A stretch of DNA of 64,000 bases, from NCBI GenBank assembly GCA_003220225.1, contig QHRU01000059.1:1-64000 (forward strand), written 5' to 3'. Position numbers and translations under genes: made by a program. The stretch comes from Candidatus Rokuibacteriota bacterium. Its GTDB lineage: Bacteria > Methylomirabilota > Methylomirabilia > Rokubacteriales > CSP1-6. Positions 30,271 through 57,055 of this stretch are shown here, piece by piece. The notes under the pieces were generated by a model. The model worked only from the letters and a program-made list of their open reading frames with translations. It was not told the origin of the DNA and ran no database searches. Numbering within the stretch: the stretch's first letter is position 1; every line of letters starts with the position of its first letter.

Positions 30271-31366
30271 TCCCGAGCAGCTTCACCGCGTTGCCGCCGA
30301 GGATGGCGACGCGATCGGCGTCGCTCAGGCCCGGCGTGCCGAGGACGTGGTCGACGGCGGTCTTCGTCCACGGATACGGGAAGTCGGTGCCGATCATGAG
30401 CCGACTGACGCCGACCTCGGCCGCGAGGTGGCGCAGGCCTTCGGGCGTGAAGACCATCGTGTCGTAGTACATCTGCTTGAGATACTCCGTCGGCTTCTTC
30501 TTGATCGGCCCATGCGGTCCGCCCGGGCATTGCGTGGGCTGGGTCGAGCAGCCCAGATCGGAGCGCGCCGCGTAGGACGGCAGATAGCCGCCCCCGTGGG
30601 CCCCGCAGATCTTCAGGCCGGGGAATTTGTCGAGGGTGCCGTCGAAGATCAGGTGCGAGAGCGCGATGGTCGTCTCCAGCGGGTTGCCGATGATGTTGCC
30701 CAGCAGCCCGTTGCCCTTGAGCCGCTTCGGGATCTCGGAGGCGACGCCCGAGCCCTGCGGATGGATGAAGACGAGCACGCCGAGCTGCTCGGCCTTGGCC
30801 CAGAACGGATCGAACTTCGGATCGCTGATCTCCTCGCCGTTGACGCTGCCGCCGATGCCGGCGCCGCGCAGCCCGTACTTCTTCACGCCGTCCTCGAGCT
30901 GCTCGGCGGCCAGATCGGGATACTGCAGCGCCACCGTCGCGAAGGCGACGAAGCGGTCGGGATGGGCGGCGCAGGCCTCGCCGAGCTTCGAATTCTGGAT
31001 CTGACAGATCTGCCTGGCGAGATCGCGCTCGGTCTTGTACCAGTACGGGTTGATGCTGAGCGCCTCGACGTCGATGCCCTGCTCGTCCATCGCGCGAAGC
31101 CGCTCGGACACGTGCGTCACCATGCTGAGCTCCGGCCGCGTCGGCGGCGCCGGCGCGCCGAGCGTCATCCCTACCAGGGCCATCGCCTCGGCCACCGCGC
31201 AGTGCGCGTGCACGTCGACGGTCTTGACGCGCCGGCCGCTCACCACGACCTCGCGGCGGCGCGTCTGCGCGCGGACGGGCGCGGCGGCCAGGAGATCGCA
31301 GCCGACGAACGCGAGGCCGGCCAGCGCGCCCGTGGTCGTCCCGAGGAACTCCCTGCGCGTGGTCAT
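30260..31366 (-). CDS. Exported amidohydrolase (ACMSD-like amidohydro_2 family), Tat signal
   Basis: A 368-residue amidohydrolase. The leader MTTRREFLGTTTGALAGLAFVGC has the twin-Arg RREFLG motif and a possible lipobox (AFVGC). The TIM-barrel metal motifs are VDVHAHC near residue 50, FIHPQG near 200, ICGAHGGGYLP near 258 and MIGTDFPYPW near 330. This subfamily covers decarboxylases and hydrolases of aromatic or lactone acids. ATG 31366 has AAGGAGG. It is divergent from the HEAT gene at 31410 with a 43-base shared gap. Confidence 0.9.
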   Translation of the reverse strand: MTTRREFLGTTTGALAGLAFVGCDLLAAAPVRAQTRRREVVVSGRRVKTVDVHAHCAVAEAMALVGMTLGAPAPPTRPELSMVTHVSERLRAMDEQGIDVEALSINPYWYKTERDLARQICQIQNSKLGEACAAHPDRFVAFATVALQYPDLAAEQLEDGVKKYGLRGAGIGGSVNGEEISDPKFDPFWAKAEQLGVLVFIHPQGSGVASEIPKRLKGNGLLGNIIGNPLETTIALSHLIFDGTLDKFPGLKICGAHGGGYLPSYAARSDLGCSTQPTQCPGGPHGPIKKKPTEYLKQMYYDTMVFTPEGLRHLAAEVGVSRLMIGTDFPYPWTKTAVDHVLGTPGLSDADRVAILGGNAVKLLGIKT

Positions 31367-31395
31367 GGTGGGTCCTCCTTTTCGACGGGGCAGGG

Positions 31396-31401
31396 TATCA
31401 T
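31396..31401 (+). promoter_or_regulatory. -10 box (TATCAT) for the HEAT-repeat gene; implies leaderless mRNA
   Basis: TATCAT ends 8 bases before ATG 31410, so transcription should begin at or next to the start codon. No ribosome binding site fits in between. The reverse strand of the same box gives TGATAC, which could serve the divergent amidohydrolase gene, whose mRNA does carry AAGGAGG. Confidence 0.5.
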
Positions 31402-31409
31402 GCCGGGTC

Positions 31410-32465
31410 ATGGGACGCTTCCTGTGGCCCCTCGCCGTCGTGGCCGCGCTCGCCATCGGCTGGGCGGCCGCCGGCGTCGCCGGCAAGACGTCCGCTGCGC
31501 GCGAAACCGGGCAGCTGAAGCAGCAGGTGTCGACGCTGCAGGCCCGGCTCCACGCGCGAGAGGAGGTCGCCGCCGCGCGGTCGTCCGACGCGGGCGGTCG
31601 GCCGGGGACGCCATCGGCGTCCCGTGCCTCGACGCCGGGTGAGCGCGGCCTCGCGGCGGCCGTCACGGAAGACCGCGTCCTTCGCGATCTGCGCGCGCGC
31701 GGCGGCGGGCCGGCCGATCGCGCGGCGTCCCGCCCCGGATCGTCCGGATCGTCGCCGAGCATCGAGGCCGCGCTCGACCGCTTCTACCGGTATCTGGAGG
31801 CGACGAGGGGCACGGAGGGGGGCGAGCGCTGGCAGCGGGCGCGCGAGCTGGTCGAAGAGCTGCGGGGCATGGGCGACGTCGCCGGCGTGGCGCTGATGAA
31901 AGTGCTCAGCGCCGGCAACGACAGCGACGAGCGGCGCGCGGCGGCGCGGCTCCTGGGCACGCTGCAAGTGCCGCAATCGCTGCCGCTGCTGAAGGACATC
32001 GTCGAGAAGGACAGCGACGTGCTCCTGCGCCGCGCCGCCGCCGTCGGGCTGCGCCAGCTGCAGACACCCGAGTCGCTGCCCGTGCTGGAGAGCATCCTGG
32101 CCAACGGCGGCGACGATCGCTTCGTCCGCCTGAGCGCCGCGTACGGCCTGGCCGAGTCGGGCCGACCGGGCGGCGTCACCGGGTTGGCGCAGATCTTCCA
32201 GGAATCGAGCGCCGACGGGCGCGGGCGCGAGATGGCGTTCCGCGCGCTCGTCTCGCTGAACGACGAGCGCTCGCTCCCGTTCATGCGCCAGGTCGTGGCG
32301 TCGGAGGTCGAGCCGTCGTATCGGCTGCGCGCGATCCAGTACCTGACCGCGCAGGGCGATCGGCAATCCGTGGCGACGCTGCAGGTCCTCATGCAGTCTC
32401 CCACCGAGCAGGCGTCGATTCGCGACGCCGCCGCGCAGGCGTACCGGACCCTCGGCGGCAGGTGA
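31410..32465 (+). CDS. Membrane-anchored HEAT-repeat protein
   Basis: A 351-residue protein with one N-terminal membrane helix (LWPLAVVAALAIGWAAAGVAG). A short coiled-coil-like part (ETGQLKQQVSTLQARLHAREEV) and a low-complexity Ser/Gly/Arg linker follow. About six HEAT/PBS-lyase-type helical repeats fill residues 140-350, such as DERRAAARLLGTLQVPQSLPLLKDIV and LLRRAAAVGLRQLQTPESLPVLESIL. It is likely a periplasm-facing scaffold. The GTG of the next gene overlaps its stop. Function unknown. Confidence 0.85.
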   Translation: MGRFLWPLAVVAALAIGWAAAGVAGKTSAARETGQLKQQVSTLQARLHAREEVAAARSSDAGGRPGTPSASRASTPGERGLAAAVTEDRVLRDLRARGGGPADRAASRPGSSGSSPSIEAALDRFYRYLEATRGTEGGERWQRARELVEELRGMGDVAGVALMKVLSAGNDSDERRAAARLLGTLQVPQSLPLLKDIVEKDSDVLLRRAAAVGLRQLQTPESLPVLESILANGGDDRFVRLSAAYGLAESGRPGGVTGLAQIFQESSADGRGREMAFRALVSLNDERSLPFMRQVVASEVEPSYRLRAIQYLTAQGDRQSVATLQVLMQSPTEQASIRDAAAQAYRTLGGR

Positions 32466-41467: not shown

Positions 41468-42261
41468 CCGGGCCGGGCGACGAGGAGCCGTCCGGCGCTC
41501 CTGATCTCGTCGGCGTCGAACGGTGGCGAAACCAGCAAGATGAGGCGCTGGACGCCGGCCCGCTCGAGCGACTGCCGCGCGCGCGAGTCCGCGCGCAGCA
41601 TGCGCTCGTCGAGCCCCGCGAACACCGTGACGACGAAGCGCGAGGCGTCGCGGCCGGAGGCCGCGTGCTCGTCGCGCGCGCGCTGGACGAGGGCGCCGAG
41701 CTGCGGATGGAAGGCCTGCGTGTTGAAGCCGTCCGCGTGTCGACCGGCGACGGCGGCCATGCGCGGACCGAAGCCGCCCACGATGATCGGCGGCGGCGGC
41801 TCGGGCCGCAGGAATCCCGACTCGCCCGCCCACAGCCGCCGGATGAGCGCGATCGCGTCGACGACGCGCTGCGCGCGGACCGCGTCGCGCTCGACCGGCT
41901 GACCGATCGCGGCCTGCTCGGCCGCGTACGGCGTGCGGCGATTGCCGCCGGCGCCCAAACCCAGGAGCAGCCTCCCGCCGGAGACTGTCTGAAGCGTCGC
42001 CGCCATGTTGGCGAGGACTCCCGCAGGGCGATTGGCGACGTTGAGCACGAGCGGGCCGAGCGAGACGCGTCGCGTGACTTCCGCCAGCGCCGTCAGCACG
42101 GTCCACGCCTCGGGGACGCCCGGGCCCCCGCCGTCGTCCGGATCGCGCAGGTGATCCCACGTCCACACTCCGTCGAAGCCGGCCCCCTCGGCGGCGAGCG
42201 CAGCGGCGCGCATCTCGGCCCAGCGCGCGCTCATCGGGATGAGGAGCAGGTCGGTCTTCAT
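41464..42261 (-). CDS. LLM class flavin/F420-dependent oxidoreductase
   Basis: A 265-residue luciferase-fold protein. It begins MKTDLLLIPMSARWAEMRAAALAAEGAGFDGVWTWDHLRDP. LGPLVLNVANRPAGVLANMAATLQTVSGGRLLLGLGAGG is the barrel segment near residues 75-112, and PPPPIIVGGFGPRMAAVAGRHADGFN lies near 165-190. It is short for the family and ends with VQRLILLVSPPFDADEIRSAGRLL. Divergent from the BNR-repeat gene at 42294, with a 32-base gap. The cofactor, F420 or FMN, cannot be decided. Confidence 0.9.
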   Translation of the reverse strand: MKTDLLLIPMSARWAEMRAAALAAEGAGFDGVWTWDHLRDPDDGGGPGVPEAWTVLTALAEVTRRVSLGPLVLNVANRPAGVLANMAATLQTVSGGRLLLGLGAGGNRRTPYAAEQAAIGQPVERDAVRAQRVVDAIALIRRLWAGESGFLRPEPPPPIIVGGFGPRMAAVAGRHADGFNTQAFHPQLGALVQRARDEHAASGRDASRFVVTVFAGLDERMLRADSRARQSLERAGVQRLILLVSPPFDADEIRSAGRLLVARPG

Positions 42262-42281
42262 GCTGTCGTGGCGCCCGAGAG

Positions 42282-42287
42282 TATCAT
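42282..42287 (+). promoter_or_regulatory. -10 box (TATCAT) for the BNR-repeat gene; implies leaderless mRNA
   Basis: TATCAT ends 6 bases before ATG 42294. On the minus strand the same place reads GATACT (42285-42280), a possible -10 for the LLM gene at 42261, so the box may serve both directions. No ribosome binding site precedes either start. Confidence 0.55.
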
Positions 42288-42293
42288 TCGGAC

Positions 42294-43205
42294 ATGGACG
42301 CGAGAATCTTCGTGGGCACCGGGGGCGGGCTGTGGACACTGGAAGGGGAGACCTCGAGGCCGGTGGAGGCGCTCGCCGGGCGATCGGTGACGGCCCTCGC
42401 CCTCGGCCCCGCGTCGGTCTGGGCCGTCGTGGATGGCTCGGCGCTGCTGGAGCTGCGCGACGGCGCCTGGACGACGCGCGCGTCGATCGACGGCCCGCCG
42501 GCGACGTGCGTCGCGCCGGCGCGTGACGGCGTTCTCGTCGGCACCGAGCAGGCCCGTCTCTTCCGGCTGACCGGGGCCGGGCTGGCGCCCATGCCGTCGT
42601 TCGAGACCGTCGAGGGCCGCGACGCCTGGTACACGCCCTGGGGCGATCCCGCCGACGTGCGGTCGATCGCCGTCGCGCTCGACGGCGCCATCCACGTCAA
42701 CGTCCACGTCGGCGGCGTCGCGCGCTCGCGCGACGGCGGGACGTCGTGGGCGCCGACGGTCGACATCGAGAGCGACGTCCATCAGGTGCTCGCCCATCCC
42801 ACGCGTCCGGAGGTCGTGCTGCTCGCGGCCGCCGAGGGCTTCGGGCTCAGTCGGGACGGCGGCGACTCGTGGACGTTCGCCACCGCGGGCCTGCACGCGC
42901 ACTACCTGCGTGCGGTGACGGTGGCCGGCGACCAGGCGCTCGTGTCGGCCTCGACGGGGTTCCGCGGACGGCGCTCGGCGATCTATCGCACGCCGCTCGA
43001 CGGCGAGACGCGCTTCGAGCGGTGTCGCGCCGGCCTGCCGGCGTGGTTCGACGACAACGTCGACACCGCGTGCCTGGCCGCGGCCGGCCCGCTCGTCGTC
43101 TTCGGCACCGGTGACGGACGCGTGTACCGGTCGCTCGATGCGGGCGCGCGCTGGGCGCTCGCCCTCAAAGGGTTGCCGCCCGTCGGCTGCGTCGCCGTCG
43201 GCTGA
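42294..43205 (+). CDS. BNR/sialidase-like beta-propeller protein
   Basis: A 303-residue cytoplasmic beta-propeller. Asp-box motifs (S-x-D-x-G-x-x-W) are seen as SRDGGTSWAP, SRDGGDSWTF and SLDAGARWAL. The N-terminus, MDARIFVGTGGGLWTLEGET, carries no signal peptide. Repeats such as VHQVLAHPTRPEVVLLAAAEGFGL support a six- or seven-bladed fold as in the exo-alpha-sialidase/photosystem-stability (Ycf48-like) group. Catalytic sialidase residues are not evident, so a binding or monitoring role is more likely than glycoside hydrolysis. Confidence 0.87.
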   Translation: MDARIFVGTGGGLWTLEGETSRPVEALAGRSVTALALGPASVWAVVDGSALLELRDGAWTTRASIDGPPATCVAPARDGVLVGTEQARLFRLTGAGLAPMPSFETVEGRDAWYTPWGDPADVRSIAVALDGAIHVNVHVGGVARSRDGGTSWAPTVDIESDVHQVLAHPTRPEVVLLAAAEGFGLSRDGGDSWTFATAGLHAHYLRAVTVAGDQALVSASTGFRGRRSAIYRTPLDGETRFERCRAGLPAWFDDNVDTACLAAAGPLVVFGTGDGRVYRSLDAGARWALALKGLPPVGCVAVG

Positions 43206-44420: not shown

Positions 44421-44584
44421 CGCTCAGTCTCCTCTCGGAACAACCGGCAGTATACTGCGCCCGAATCCCGGAGACCGGATGATCCGCCCGGCCTGGGTGC
44501 GCTCCTGCGCTACCCGTCCCCGGTGCCGCAGGCGGTGCGCTGAGCGTCGCGATCGACACTCGCCGGGCGGCGCCAGATTCGTCA

Positions 44585-45752: not shown

Positions 45753-46538
45753 CTACCGGTGGCGCTCGAGCCGCGTGCGCTCCTCCGGCGTCCACGACAG
45801 AGCCGTCTCCTGCGCCGCGCGCGCGCACCAGCTCGAATCCTCGTCGCAGGCGCGCAGGAATGCCTGCCGGGCGGCGTCGATTCGACCGGCGCGCAGCGCG
45901 ACGCTGCCGACCGCATACCGGTGGACGGCGCACGGCCCCGGCTCGGGACCGCGGCAGTACCTTTCGAGCACGCGCGCGGCATCTTCCTCCCAGCGCGTGG
46001 GCGGCGCGGTCGGCGCGCGCTCGGCGGATTCGAGGAGCCGGGTCGCGATGATGTCGCAGGCGGCGTCGACCCCCAGACGGCACGGGCGCAACCGCGAGTC
46101 GTCGCCGACGAGCCAGACCACGCCGAGCGTGAGCGCGACGCCCGTGCCGGCGAGCAACAGCAGGTCGATCCTCCGGAAGGCGCGCTTGTTGTACTTCACG
46201 CGCCTCACGAGCATGAAGAGGGCGACCACGCCGGCGACGGCGAGGACGATTCCCAGCAGATAGACGCGCGCGAGCAGGTCGTCGGTGGCGCCGAGCCCTC
46301 GGAACCTCAGATAGCTCGTGGCGATCCAGCCGAGGGCGACGAGACCGGCGCCGAGGCCCGCCCTGACGAGCAGCGCGGCCGCGCGCGAGCGTCCCGCCAG
46401 CCCCGCCCCGAGGACGATGAGCAAGATGCCGAAGGCGAGCAGCGGCGGCTCGCGCTCGAAGATGGAGCCGCCGGCCCAGAGGTACGCGACGCAGGCCCCG
46501 CCGAGCATGAGGAAGATCGCGCCGACGAACATATGCAT
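45753..46538 (-). CDS. Membrane protein with Cys-rich Sel1/TPR-like C-terminal domain
   Basis: A 261-residue protein of unknown function. Five membrane helices occupy about residues 1-150 (for example FVGAIFLMLGGACVAYLWAGG, LLAFGILLIVLGAGLAG, VYLLGIVLAVAGVVALFMLVRRV and LLLLAGTGVALTLGVVWLVGD). The soluble end has paired cysteines: PCRLGVDAACD, YCRGPEPGPC and ACDEDSSWC. These sit in helical Sel1-like repeats such as GSVALRAGRIDAARQAFLRAC. Disulfide bonds are likely, so the tail probably faces the periplasm. It is divergent from the lipoprotein gene at 46566; CATAAT lies 6 bases before its ATG. Confidence 0.8.
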   Translation of the reverse strand: MHMFVGAIFLMLGGACVAYLWAGGSIFEREPPLLAFGILLIVLGAGLAGRSRAAALLVRAGLGAGLVALGWIATSYLRFRGLGATDDLLARVYLLGIVLAVAGVVALFMLVRRVKYNKRAFRRIDLLLLAGTGVALTLGVVWLVGDDSRLRPCRLGVDAACDIIATRLLESAERAPTAPPTRWEEDAARVLERYCRGPEPGPCAVHRYAVGSVALRAGRIDAARQAFLRACDEDSSWCARAAQETALSWTPEERTRLERHR

Positions 46539-46565
46539 CGTACGATTATGACTTAGAGTTGCGGC

Positions 46566-47615
46566 ATGACGCTGCGCTCATGCGCGCTGGCCGTTGCCGT
46601 CGCCCTGTCGCTCGCCGGCTGCTCCGACGGCCCTTTACCGGTCACGGCCACCCGGGTCCTCGAGGTGGCGGGTCTACGCGCGGTGGTGAACGCGGTCGCC
46701 CTCAGTCCCGACGGCAGTCTGGTCGTCGTCGGCGATATGGACGGCGACCTGATCGCGCGCGAGGTGCCCGCCGGCGCCGAGCGCTGGAAGGTGCCGGTGC
46801 ACCCCCGGGGCGCCGCGCGCAGCATCGACGGCGTCGCGTTCTCGCCCGACGGCTCGCTCCTCGCCACGATTGGACACGGCGCGCGGACGGTCGAGCTGTG
46901 GGAGGCGGCGACCGGCCGCCAGGCGGCGGTGCTGAGTATCGGCCAGAGCCGCGGGTCCGCGTTCCACCCGACCGAGCGCGTGCTCGTCGTCGTCGGGGGA
47001 ACGACCATTCACCTGGTCGACCTCGAGCGCGGCGAGCTCGTCCGTACCCTTCCCAACGCGCACCAGGGAGACCGCATCGACGCGGTCGCCTTCTCGGGCG
47101 ACGGCCGCGTGCTGGCCACCACCTCGGACGGCGGCGGGCTGAAGCTCTGGAACTGGCCGGCGCTGACCCTGCGAGGGTCGGTGTCGATGGCGAGCTCGCT
47201 GGAGGCCATGGCGCCGGTCTCGCTCGCGCTGAATCGCGACGGGACGCGCGCGGCAGCCAACGGCATCCTCGGCCAGGTGCACGTGATGAGCGTGGTGAAG
47301 GAGCGCGAGGAGCGCACCTTCGCCAACACCGCCCAGGCGCCGGGCCACGGCCTGCACGGCGAGATGCGCTACTCGCTCGCGTTCACCGAAGACGGCGACT
47401 GGCTGTTCGCCCCCGACACCCACGACCGCGGCCTGCGCATCCTGCACGTGCCCGGGGGCAAGGGCTTCAGCGTTCTGCGCGGCGAGGGGCCGTTCTACAA
47501 GGCGATGGCGCTCGCGCTCGGGGCCAGCATGGTGGCGCTGCTGCGTCCCGGCGACACCGAGGGCCGGGGCCCGTACGGCGTGGAGGTGTGGCGCCTGACG
47601 TACCGCGCGAAGTGA
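46566..47615 (+). CDS. WD40-repeat lipoprotein
   Basis: A 349-residue beta-propeller with a lipoprotein signal: MTLRSCALAVAVALSLAGCS, where LAGC is the lipobox. WD40-type blades include VNAVALSPDGSLVVVGDMDGDLIARE, IDGVAFSPDGSLLATIGHGARTVELW and IDAVAFSGDGRVLATTSDGGGLKLWNW. It is expected to be anchored to the inner or outer membrane and to act as a protein-binding scaffold. It shares a 27-base gap with the divergent membrane-protein gene, suggesting joint expression. No enzymatic motif. Confidence 0.88.
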   Translation: MTLRSCALAVAVALSLAGCSDGPLPVTATRVLEVAGLRAVVNAVALSPDGSLVVVGDMDGDLIAREVPAGAERWKVPVHPRGAARSIDGVAFSPDGSLLATIGHGARTVELWEAATGRQAAVLSIGQSRGSAFHPTERVLVVVGGTTIHLVDLERGELVRTLPNAHQGDRIDAVAFSGDGRVLATTSDGGGLKLWNWPALTLRGSVSMASSLEAMAPVSLALNRDGTRAAANGILGQVHVMSVVKEREERTFANTAQAPGHGLHGEMRYSLAFTEDGDWLFAPDTHDRGLRILHVPGGKGFSVLRGEGPFYKAMALALGASMVALLRPGDTEGRGPYGVEVWRLTYRAK

Positions 47616-54390: not shown

Positions 54391-55455
54391 TCAGGAGTCA
54401 CGGTAGGCGGCGAGCACCGCGCCCGCCATCTCCTTCGTCGTCGCGGTCCCGCGCTGGTCGGGCGTGAGCGCCTTGCCGTCGCGATAGACCCGTGCGACGG
54501 CCGCCTGCAGGCGCTCGGCCTCGGCGGCGAGCCCGAGGTGCTCGAGCATGAGCGCGGCGGACAGCAGCGTGCCGGTCGGATTCGCGATGCCGCGGCCCGC
54601 GATGTCCGGCGCGGAGCCGTGCACCGACTCGAAGTACGCCCAGCGTCCGTCGCCGAAGTTGGCCGAGGGCGCGACGCCGAGGCCACCGGCGACCTCGCCC
54701 GCGACGTCGGACAGGATATCGGCGTACTGGTTCATGCACACGACGACGTCCATGGTCTTCGGAAAACGGATGATCCGCCGCGCGGCGTCGTCCACGTGGA
54801 AGTGCTCGAACGCGAGATCGGGATACGTGGCGACGGTCTCTTTGACGATCGCGTGGAACAGCCCGTCGGTCTGCGGCAGCACGTTGGACTTCGTCACGCA
54901 GGTGACTTTGCCGGCGTGGCCGCGCGCCTTGCGCCGGCGGGCCAGCTCGCACGCGAAGCGCGCGATCCGCGCGGCGCCGTCGCGCGTCACCACCTTGACG
55001 GCGAAGCGCCCGTCCTTGTAGCGGTCGAGGCCGCGCCCGAAGCGATCGCGCACGGTCGGTAGCGCGCGTGCCAGCTCTGCGATATCGCCCTCGCGGCCGG
55101 GATACATGCCCTCGGAGTTCTCGCGGATGACGACGAGGTCGATGCCGTCGGGGTCGGCGAGCGGCGAGCGCATGCCCGGGTAGAACTTCGCGGGCCGCAC
55201 GCCGGCCCACGCGTCCATCTCCCAGCGGAGCCAGCCGACCACCCGCGTCGTCGCCGGGCCCGCGGCGCCGAAGAGCACGGCGTCCGCCTCTCGGCACGCG
55301 CGCTGCGTGTCCTCGGGCACCGGCGAGCCCGGCGCCGAGATCTGCGGCGGCGTCACGATCTTCACGGGCATGCCGGCGCCGCTCAGGAGCGCGCACGTGG
55401 CCTCGACCACCTCGACGCCGATGCCTTCACCGGGGAGCGCGACGATCGTTTTCAT
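54391..55455 (-). CDS. Isocitrate/isopropylmalate dehydrogenase family protein (tartrate-dehydrogenase-like)
   Basis: A 354-residue beta-decarboxylating dehydrogenase. It starts KTIVALPGEGIGVEVVEAT. The substrate loop is DLVVIRENSEGMYPGREGD near residues 110-130, the catalytic Lys is in VTCVTKSNVLPQTDGLF near 195, and metal Asp residues are in VVVCMNQYADILSDVAGEVAGG near 235-255. ESVHGSAPDIAGRGIANPTGTLLSAALMLEH is the NAD loop. The divergence in the LRWEMDAWAGVRPAKF region leaves the substrate (malate, tartrate or homologue) open. Its ATG is 22 bases from the divergent binding-protein ATG. Confidence 0.9.
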   Translation of the reverse strand: MKTIVALPGEGIGVEVVEATCALLSGAGMPVKIVTPPQISAPGSPVPEDTQRACREADAVLFGAAGPATTRVVGWLRWEMDAWAGVRPAKFYPGMRSPLADPDGIDLVVIRENSEGMYPGREGDIAELARALPTVRDRFGRGLDRYKDGRFAVKVVTRDGAARIARFACELARRRKARGHAGKVTCVTKSNVLPQTDGLFHAIVKETVATYPDLAFEHFHVDDAARRIIRFPKTMDVVVCMNQYADILSDVAGEVAGGLGVAPSANFGDGRWAYFESVHGSAPDIAGRGIANPTGTLLSAALMLEHLGLAAEAERLQAAVARVYRDGKALTPDQRGTATTKEMAGAVLAAYRDS

Positions 55456-55462
55456 GGGCGCC

Positions 55463-55470
55463 AGTATAAT
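55463..55470. promoter_or_regulatory. Bidirectional -10 element serving two leaderless divergent genes
   Basis: AGTATAAT reads as TATAAT on the plus strand (55465-55470) and as TATACT on the minus strand (55468-55463). The plus box is followed by 7 bases (GCCGGCC) and ATG 55478. The minus box is followed by 7 bases (GGCGCCC) and ATG 55455. Both transcripts should begin at or near the first codon. The core is almost perfectly symmetric. Confidence 0.7.
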
Positions 55471-55477
55471 GCCGGCC

Positions 55478-57055
55478 ATGAAAACGTTCCTGACCGCGCT
55501 CGCCCTCGTCTCGCTGCTGGTCACGCCCGCTGCCGCCCAGGAGACGCCCCGCCGCGGCGGCGAGCTGGTCTTCGTCGTCGCCGCCGAGCCCCCGAGCTTC
55601 GACGCCCACCAGGAAGAGACCTTCGCGATGCTGCACCCGGGCGCGCCGCAGTACAACACGCTGATGCGCGTGGACCCCACCGACCGCACCGGTACCAAGC
55701 TCGTCGGCGACCTCGCCGAGTCGTGGACGATCTCGCCCGATCGCCGCATCTACACGTTCAAGGTCCGCAAGGGCGTGAAGTTCCACGACGGCAGCGTGAT
55801 GACGTCGGCGGACGTGAAGGCCTCCTACGACCACATCATCTTCCCGCCGGCCGCCGTGGTGTCGAGCCGTCAAGCCACCTACGGCGCGGTGCAGTCGGTG
55901 CAGGCGCCGGCGCCGGACACGGTCGTCTTCCGCCTCAAGCACCCCGAAGCCTCGTTCCTGACGAACCTCGCGCAACCGTGGAACTGGATCTACAAGGCCG
56001 ACATCCTGGCCAAGGATCCGAACTGGTACAAGACGAACGTGATGGGCACGGGCCCGTTCAAGTTCGTGGAATACGTGCGTGGCTCGCACTGGGTCGGCAA
56101 GAGGAATCCGGATTACTGGGACAAGGGCAAGCCCTACCTCGACGGCTTCCGCGCCATCTTCATTCCGAGCGCCTCGGCGCAGGTGGCGGCCGTCCGGGGC
56201 GAGCGCGCCATGATCCAGTTCCGCAGCTTCACCCCGGCTGACCGCGACAGCCTCGTCAACGCGCTCGGCAGCAAGATCACCGTGCAGGAAAGCGCGTGGA
56301 ACTGCTCGATCGGAGTGACGCCCAACGAGCAGAAGAAACCGTACGACGACAAGCGCGTGCGCCGGGCGCTCTCGCTCGCGCTGGACCGCTGGGAGGGCTC
56401 CAAGGCGCTGTCGCGCATCGCGCTGATCAAGGAGGTGGCCGGCATCCAGGTGCCCGGCACCCAGTGGGCGACGCCGCCCGCCGAGCTGGAGAAGCTGGCC
56501 GGCTACGGGCGTGACATCAACGCCGCGCGCGCCGAGGCGCGGCGGCTGCTGAAGGAGGCGGGCGTCGAGAACCTGTCCTTCACGCTGCTCAATCGCGCGG
56601 TGCCGCAGCCCTACGAGCCGTTCGGCATCTGGCTCATCGACCAGTGGCGGCAGATCGGCATCACCGTCAAGCACAATGCCGTGGAGACGTCGTCCTGGTT
56701 CGGGGCGCTGAGGAGCGGTGATTTCGAAGTCGCGGTCACGGCGCCGTGCAACACGATCGTCGAGCCGGATCTCGACATCCACTGGTTCCTCACGACGTCG
56801 CCGGTGAACTACGGCAAGCACAAGGACACCGTGATGGACGACCTGTACTCCCGGCAGTCGCGCACGCTCGATTCCGAGGAGCGGCGCCGACTCCTGCGCC
56901 AGTACGAGAAGCGGCTCTACGACGAGGAAGTGCACTTCATCATGGGCTTCCAGTGGCACCGGATCGTGCCGCACCTGGCGAAGGTGCGGGGCTGGACGAT
57001 CAGCCCGAGCCACTTCCTGAATCAGCAGCTCGATACGGTCTGGCTCAGCGACTAG
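55478..57055 (+). CDS. ABC transporter family-5 substrate-binding protein
   Basis: A 525-residue periplasmic binding protein. The signal peptide is MKTFLTALALVSLLVTPAAAQ, followed by TPRRGGELVFVVAAEPPSFDAHQEETFAMLHPGAPQYNTLM and the IYTFKVRKGVKFHDGSVMTSADVKASYDHI signature near residues 88-117. FGIWLIDQWRQIGITVKHNAVE is a late family block. No permease or ATPase genes adjoin it; a ThDP enzyme gene follows 108 bases later. An ATG 9 bases upstream (55469) is less likely because it lies within the -10 box. Confidence 0.92.
   Translation: MKTFLTALALVSLLVTPAAAQETPRRGGELVFVVAAEPPSFDAHQEETFAMLHPGAPQYNTLMRVDPTDRTGTKLVGDLAESWTISPDRRIYTFKVRKGVKFHDGSVMTSADVKASYDHIIFPPAAVVSSRQATYGAVQSVQAPAPDTVVFRLKHPEASFLTNLAQPWNWIYKADILAKDPNWYKTNVMGTGPFKFVEYVRGSHWVGKRNPDYWDKGKPYLDGFRAIFIPSASAQVAAVRGERAMIQFRSFTPADRDSLVNALGSKITVQESAWNCSIGVTPNEQKKPYDDKRVRRALSLALDRWEGSKALSRIALIKEVAGIQVPGTQWATPPAELEKLAGYGRDINAARAEARRLLKEAGVENLSFTLLNRAVPQPYEPFGIWLIDQWRQIGITVKHNAVETSSWFGALRSGDFEVAVTAPCNTIVEPDLDIHWFLTTSPVNYGKHKDTVMDDLYSRQSRTLDSEERRRLLRQYEKRLYDEEVHFIMGFQWHRIVPHLAKVRGWTISPSHFLNQQLDTVWLSD

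What the first reader, a model, noticed from the sequence alone, without database searches (positions are those of the whole stretch)
55456..55477. Symmetric 22-bp divergent promoter driving two leaderless genes
Two start codons face away from each other with only 22 bases between. A single AGTATAAT gives TATAAT on one strand and TATACT on the other, each exactly 7 bases from its ATG. There is no room for ribosome binding sites. This is about as compact as a divergent promoter can be.
Basis: seen in the sequence. Interest (0 to 1): 0.72.

Follow-up and report, generated by a model that had tools for sequence, protein, structure and literature searches.

The report
Shared promoter for two leaderless genes
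In an uncultured soil bacterium (Rokubacteria), two genes pointing away from each other appear to share one 8-letter promoter core with their start codons 7 bases away on each side, a compact layout that recurs elsewhere in this genome and is kept in close relatives.

Summary
CAT-GGGCGCC-AGTATAAT-GCCGGCC-ATG lies at 55453-55480, with TATAAT and TATACT each 7 nt from an ATG and no Shine-Dalgarno between. The minus gene is an isopropylmalate/isocitrate dehydrogenase-like enzyme. The plus gene is a family-5 ABC solute-binding protein with a signal peptide. Two congeneric Rokubacteria keep the pair and the exact AGTATAAT core (spacers 7-8 nt), while a 1-nt indel in one and base changes in both abolish the alternative upstream starts. 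So the start codons, and by inference two leaderless mRNAs, are well supported.

It is not unique. TANNNT boxes in this genome peak 6-9 nt before ATG (mode 7). Among 200 called divergent pairs in 2.3 Mb, 16 have boxes on both sides (decoy mean 0.9, maximum 5) and in 10 the boxes overlap (decoy mean 0.6, maximum 3). Two other AGTATANT sites are equally compact: metH/CoA-transferase (21 bp) and sppA/threonine dehydratase (23 bp). So "as compact as possible" is wrong.

[quoted passage not shown] coli), each orientation giving a leaderless mRNA. The combination is a variant of two known kinds. No transcript data exist here.

The parts
55463..55470 (.). Shared core AGTATAAT: two -10 hexamers overlapping by 4 bp (common TATA)
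   Evidence: Sequence. Invariant in the two congeners G001 and G002. Same core type at two other divergent pairs of the genome.
55465..55470 (+). -10 element TATAAT for the plus gene, 7 nt before its ATG
   Evidence: Genome-wide peak of TANNNT at 6-9 nt before ATG.
55463..55468 (-). -10 element TATACT for the minus gene, 7 nt before its ATG
   Evidence: TATACT is among the two most frequent boxes in the genome's leaderless-type set.
55478..57055 (+). ABC transporter substrate-binding protein, family 5 (SBP_bac_5), 525 aa, N-terminal signal-peptide-like MKTFLTALALVSLLVTPAAAQ; predicted leaderless mRNA from A55478
   Evidence: N-terminus kept in G001 and G002.
54391..55455 (-). Isocitrate/isopropylmalate dehydrogenase-like enzyme, 354 aa (MKTIVALPGEGIG...); predicted leaderless mRNA from A55455
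   Evidence: no equivalog reaches its cut-off. Orthologues begin MKT at the same place.
55444..55489 (.). 46-bp quasi-palindrome centred in the TATA, covering both start codons and the first codons (GTTTTCATGG / CCATGAAAAC arms)
   Evidence: 83% complementary, no loop. Arms of about 11-12 bp in the congeners.

Best explanation
The 22-bp gap is a bidirectional sigma-70-type promoter. The two -10 elements, TATAAT and TATACT, share the self-complementary TATA, so RNA polymerase can melt and bind this one core in either orientation. It then starts at or within a base of the A of the ATG on that side (predicted starts 55478 on + and 55455 on -, 23 bp apart). Each start gives an mRNA without a 5' leader, translated by binding of ribosomes to the 5'-terminal AUG. 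The two orientations exclude each other at any one moment because both polymerase footprints cover the same DNA. Shown: the geometry, the conservation of core and start codons in the genus, the absence of SD and -35, and the genome-wide enrichment of this architecture. Inferred: polymerase binding in both orientations, start sites, leaderless translation.
For: Exact geometry. Core AGTATAAT invariant in three congeneric species, with spacers 7/7, 8/7 and 7/7, while the right spacer varies. In G001 one inserted base puts the far ATGs out of frame, and TATAATG is TATAATC in both congeners, leaving only the described ATGs in common. In G002 the minus gene's N-terminus differs by about 4 codons, yet an ATG again sits 7 nt from the box. 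TANNNT peaks 6-9 nt upstream of ATG genome-wide, mode 7: 90 genes at 6-8 nt against a decoy mean of 15, maximum 49 for a decoy overlapping the true motif. Boxes on both sides within 45 bp in 16 of 200 called divergent pairs (decoys 0.9, maximum 5), overlapping in 10 (decoys 0.6, maximum 3); the focal pair is not in that count. Independent replicates: metH/CoA-transferase (kept in G002) and sppA/threonine dehydratase. Overlapping symmetric -10 elements are known to drive divergent transcription in E. coli and Salmonella (PMC12825309, PMC10268837), and TANNNT next to an ORF drives leaderless mRNA in Deinococcus (PMC12340547).
Against: No transcript data. No -35 and no TGn extended -10 on either side, so both directions may be weak or need an activator. 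The predicted TSS distance (21-23 bp) is not the 18-bp optimum reported for bidirectional promoters (PMC10268837). In G002 an AGGAGG stands 6 nt before an in-frame far ATG of the minus gene, so a led mRNA for that gene cannot be excluded in that species.
Confidence: 0.8

Rival explanations
1. Only one direction uses the box. The other gene is transcribed from a promoter further upstream, inside the opposite gene, with an SD-led or long-leader mRNA.
For: The minus strand of the own genome has AGGA 8 nt, and G002 AGGAGG 6 nt, before an in-frame far ATG (55479 in the window). Most genes of this genome use SD.
Against: In G001 that ATG is out of frame and no AGGAGG is present, so the signal is not conserved while both boxes are. 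CCTCCT arises easily in a GC-rich leucine-coding stretch. No two-box promoter lies nearby.
Confidence: 0.13
2. The 46-bp palindrome is mainly an operator for a dimeric regulator, and the promoter symmetry is a by-product.
For: 46-bp quasi-palindrome. Arms stay paired in the congeners although one codon-3 base differs (ACG/ACG in the window, ACC/ACC in both congeners).
Against: The arms are coding sequence (MKT in both genes). The other shared-box pairs of the genome lack such arms. No regulator gene is next to the site. Concerted arms can also arise by template switching in a palindrome.
Confidence: 0.1
3. The symmetric box and its placement are chance.
For: The TATA core is self-complementary, so any TATANT is half-symmetric. 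ANTATANT itself is not over-represented in the genome (33 against 35).
Against: 0.03 copies of AGTATAAT expected in the window. Core and spacing kept in three species. Both-sided placement exceeds all 59 decoys.
Confidence: 0.02

Closest known systems
Bidirectional promoters with a shared symmetric -10 element (Warman et al. 2021, cited in PMC12825309; Middlemiss et al. 2023, PMC10268837)
   Same: One -10 region read on both strands; divergent starts either side of it; no need for a -35.
   Different: Most common arrangement there has TSSs 18 bp apart with -7 and -11 reciprocally paired (I read this as TANNNTA). Here the hexamers overlap as ANTATANT, with predicted starts 21-23 bp apart. Here both RNAs are mRNAs that would begin at the start codon.
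Leaderless genes with the -10 box adjacent to the ORF (Deinococcus-Thermus, PMC12340547; Mycobacterium tuberculosis, PMC3898074)
   Same: TANNNT box immediately upstream of ATG, no SD.
   Different: Two genes share one box; lineage is Rokubacteria, for which the paper library search on leaderless genes found nothing.
M. tuberculosis prpD (Rv1130) / Rv1129c and other closely juxtaposed divergent promoters (PMC3898074)
   Same: Divergent neighbours with both TSSs at start codons; closely juxtaposed divergent promoters called common there.
   Different: Whether one -10 core is shared there was not tested here. The Rokubacteria sites are defined by sequence and conservation only.
lysG/lysE of M. 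tuberculosis (PMC5648196)
   Same: Divergent pair with overlapping promoter motifs and an inverted repeat; one leaderless transcript.
   Different: 108-bp intergenic region, a LysR regulator and separate promoters; not a minimal shared core.

Membership tests
Bidirectional promoter with shared -10 | -10 hexamers on both strands that overlap | tested here: met
   TATAAT 55465-55470 (+) and TATACT 55468-55463 (-), 4 bp shared
Bidirectional promoter with shared -10 | Mapped TSSs on opposite strands 7-25 bp apart | not testable with these tools
   Predicted 23 bp (A55455, A55478); no RNA data
Bidirectional promoter with shared -10 | Most common 18-bp configuration (-7T and -11A reciprocally paired) | tested here: not met
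   Core is ANTATANT, not TANNNTA (definition from PMC10268837). It is the commonest form, not a requirement.
Leaderless gene | -10 box TANNNT 6-8 nt before the start codon | tested here: met
   7 nt on both sides; genome peak at 6-9
Leaderless gene | No Shine-Dalgarno before the start codon | tested here: met
   GGGCGCCAGTATAATGCCGGCC has none on either strand
Leaderless gene | Start codon correctly assigned | tested here: met
   Frame shift and base changes in the congeners leave only these ATGs in common
Leaderless gene | mRNA 5' end at the A of AUG | not testable with these tools
   Needs 5'-end mapping

The most novel reading that the evidence does not exclude
Rokubacteria use a genome-wide class of minimal divergent gene pairs (19-29 bp between start codons) in which one overlapping -10 core drives two leaderless mRNAs. 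The whole regulatory and start-site information of two genes is packed into one symmetric element, in places copied from one side to the other by palindrome template switching.
Probability: 0.45. Interest if true: 0.55.

Novelty: new variant of a known kind. Interest (0 to 1): 0.45.

Why it matters
It joins two known themes, symmetric bidirectional -10 elements and leaderless mRNAs, in about the smallest space they allow, in a phylum that to my knowledge has no cultured member. If the starts are confirmed, this is a natural test bed for how polymerase chooses a direction with no -35 to guide it, and for mutual exclusion between two essentially overlapping promoters. It also gives a rule for correcting start codons in such genomes: an ATG 6-9 nt after TANNNT.

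Tried and rejected
Alternative in-frame starts (55454 and 55469 on +, 55479 on -) were considered and rejected by comparison with G001 and G002. SD depletion as evidence for leaderless genes (3 of 90 against 516 of 1105) was discounted: decoy boxes in the same place show much of the same depletion (9%), since box and SD compete for space. A general -35 was looked for: full or near matches are somewhat more frequent in the leaderless-type set (9 of 90 against 5% for decoys) but absent at the focal site. Conservation outside the genus: in the relatives examined the two genes were not found side by side and the solute-binding orthologues have SDs or other upstream regions. G001:C70, a 7/7 pattern match, looks doubtful as a gene pair. 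Rfam has nothing here.

Full report
WHAT IS THERE. The sequence at 55453-55480 reads CAT GGGCGCC AGTATAAT GCCGGCC ATG. The gap between the two ATGs is 22 nt. The plus strand carries TATAAT at 55465-55470, the minus strand TATACT at 55468-55463, and each is 7 nt from its ATG. AGTATAAT occurs once in the window, with 0.03 expected in shuffles. There is no Shine-Dalgarno sequence in the gap, no two-box sigma-70 site around it, and the best -35 match is 2 of 6 bases on either side.

THE TWO GENES. The minus gene (54391-55455, 354 aa) belongs to the isocitrate/isopropylmalate dehydrogenase family (PF00180, E 5.6e-80); no NCBIfam equivalog reaches its cut-off, so the substrate is open. The plus gene (55478-57055, 525 aa) is a family-5 ABC substrate-binding protein (PF00496, E 1.8e-69) with what reads as a signal peptide directly after the ATG. 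The genome is 6.03 Mb in 167 contigs. Its closest named relatives are 'Candidatus Rokuibacteriota' MAGs.

ARE THE START CODONS RIGHT? This mattered, because other in-frame ATGs exist: 55454 and 55469 on the plus strand, 55479 on the minus strand. Two species of the same genus, G001 and G002, keep the divergent pair. All three share AGTATAAT exactly. The spacers (minus/plus side) are 7/7 in the window, 8/7 in G001 and 7/7 in G002. The extra base in G001 puts both far ATGs out of frame, and the ATG inside TATAATG is TATAATC in both congeners. Orthologues of the minus gene in other genera also begin M-K-T at this codon, some of them behind a clear SD. In G002 the minus gene has about four extra N-terminal codons, but again an ATG stands 7 nt from the box: the distance to the box is kept while the protein's end is not.

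IS THE ARCHITECTURE GENERAL HERE? I analysed about 2.3 Mb of the same genome. -10-like TANNNT boxes pile up 6-9 nt before ATGs, with the mode at 7 nt, although most genes use SD. At 6-8 nt, 90 of 1195 ATG genes have TANNNT; 59 decoy motifs of the same make-up average 15, and the highest (49) overlaps the true motif. Among 200 called divergent gene pairs, 16 have a box at 6-9 nt on both sides within 45 bp (decoys: mean 0.9, maximum 5), and in 10 the two boxes overlap (decoys: mean 0.6, maximum 3). The focal pair is not among these, because my simple gene caller lost its minus gene, so the count does not rest on it. One counted locus had been fetched because it held a hit, a small bias. One or two of the 16 also carry an SD-like sequence (e.g. 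L103).

REPLICATES. Whole-genome pattern search gave exactly three sites with TATANT 6-8 nt from ATG on both strands and a shared core: the focal site; C159:145819-145847, CAT-N7-AGTATACT-N8-ATG, between an SppA-like protease and a threonine dehydratase-like enzyme; and C96:38886-38912, CAT-N6-AGTATAGT-N7-ATG, between a MetH-like methionine synthase and a CaiB-like CoA transferase (names by my reading of the sequences). The C96 gap is 21 bp, shorter than the focal one. Its core is kept in G002 (gap 19 bp, 4 nt on the metH side), and TATAGTAGCG before the CoA-transferase start is kept in G010, G020 and G035, which are other genera. A further pair, QueC-like and YhhQ-like (C113, L211:4988), uses the wider overlap ANNNTANNNT. 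In the class, the exact 7/7 symmetric pattern is rare: 4 of 95 genomes.

MECHANISM. The best-supported reading is a bidirectional promoter. The TATA common to both hexamers lets polymerase melt the same core in either orientation, and the 7-nt discriminator puts the start at the A of the ATG, so both mRNAs are leaderless. In E. coli, symmetric -10 elements produce 19% of detected RNAs (PMC12825309), usually with starts 18 bp apart (PMC10268837). Here the hexamers overlap differently (ANTATANT), and the predicted distance is 21-23 bp. In the fetched part of this genome the TANNNTA arrangement, which I take to be the 18-bp form, gave no both-sided pair in 158 occurrences, against 7 of 318 for ANNNTANNNT and 3 of 13 for ANTATANT with any start codon. 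That is suggestive but small. The Deinococcus work shows by experiment that TANNNT next to an ORF drives leaderless mRNA (PMC12340547). Simultaneous use of both orientations is excluded by footprint size. Whether this creates competition depends on strength; for five E. coli promoters it did not (PMC12825309).

THE PALINDROME. Both genes begin ATGAAAACG, so the site is a 46-bp quasi-palindrome. In the congeners the arms are about 11-12 bp and the third base of codon 3 differs from the window on both sides alike (ACG/ACG against ACC/ACC). The extra codons ATG AAA ACC CTG of G002's minus gene copy, in inverted orientation, the start of the plus gene (11 of 12 bases in G002, 12 of 12 in G001). 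Template switching within the palindrome would explain this; an operator for a dimeric regulator is the rival. With three species neither is settled. The other shared-box pairs lack such arms.

VERDICT. Observation confirmed; interpretation supported by comparison but without RNA data; 'as compact as can be' not correct. It is a variant of two known kinds joined together, repeated in this genome and conserved within its genus.

Noticed in passing
55444-55489; L170, L171: 46-bp quasi-palindrome whose arms change together between species. G002 has extra start codons in the minus gene that copy the plus gene's start in inverted orientation, possibly palindrome template switching.
   Followed up: partly
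L167 (G000:C96:38886-38912); L233 (G002): metH-like / CoA-transferase-like divergent pair, 21-bp gap (19 bp in G002), shared core AGTATAGT. TATAGTAGCG before the CoA-transferase start is kept in several genera.
   Followed up: yes
L166 (G000:C159:145819-145847): sppA-like / threonine dehydratase-like divergent pair, 23-bp gap, fully symmetric core AGTATACT.
   Followed up: partly
L211:4988 (G000:C113, about 184990): QueC-like and YhhQ-like genes, both tied to queuosine by my own knowledge, divergent over a 25-bp gap with overlapping boxes ATAATACACT.
   Followed up: partly
window 31364-31412, 42259-42296, 46536-46568: Three further compact divergent start-codon pairs in the window (gaps 43, 32 and 27 bp) with TATCAT or TACGAT boxes near an ATG.
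   Followed up: no
window 44449-44456: A second, perfectly palindromic AGTATACT without ATGs at the leaderless distance on both sides.
   Followed up: no
whole genome: At least 24 relatives of the solute-binding protein in this genome, several in tandem (e.g. C93:97657-102454), a large expansion of family-5 binding proteins.
   Followed up: no
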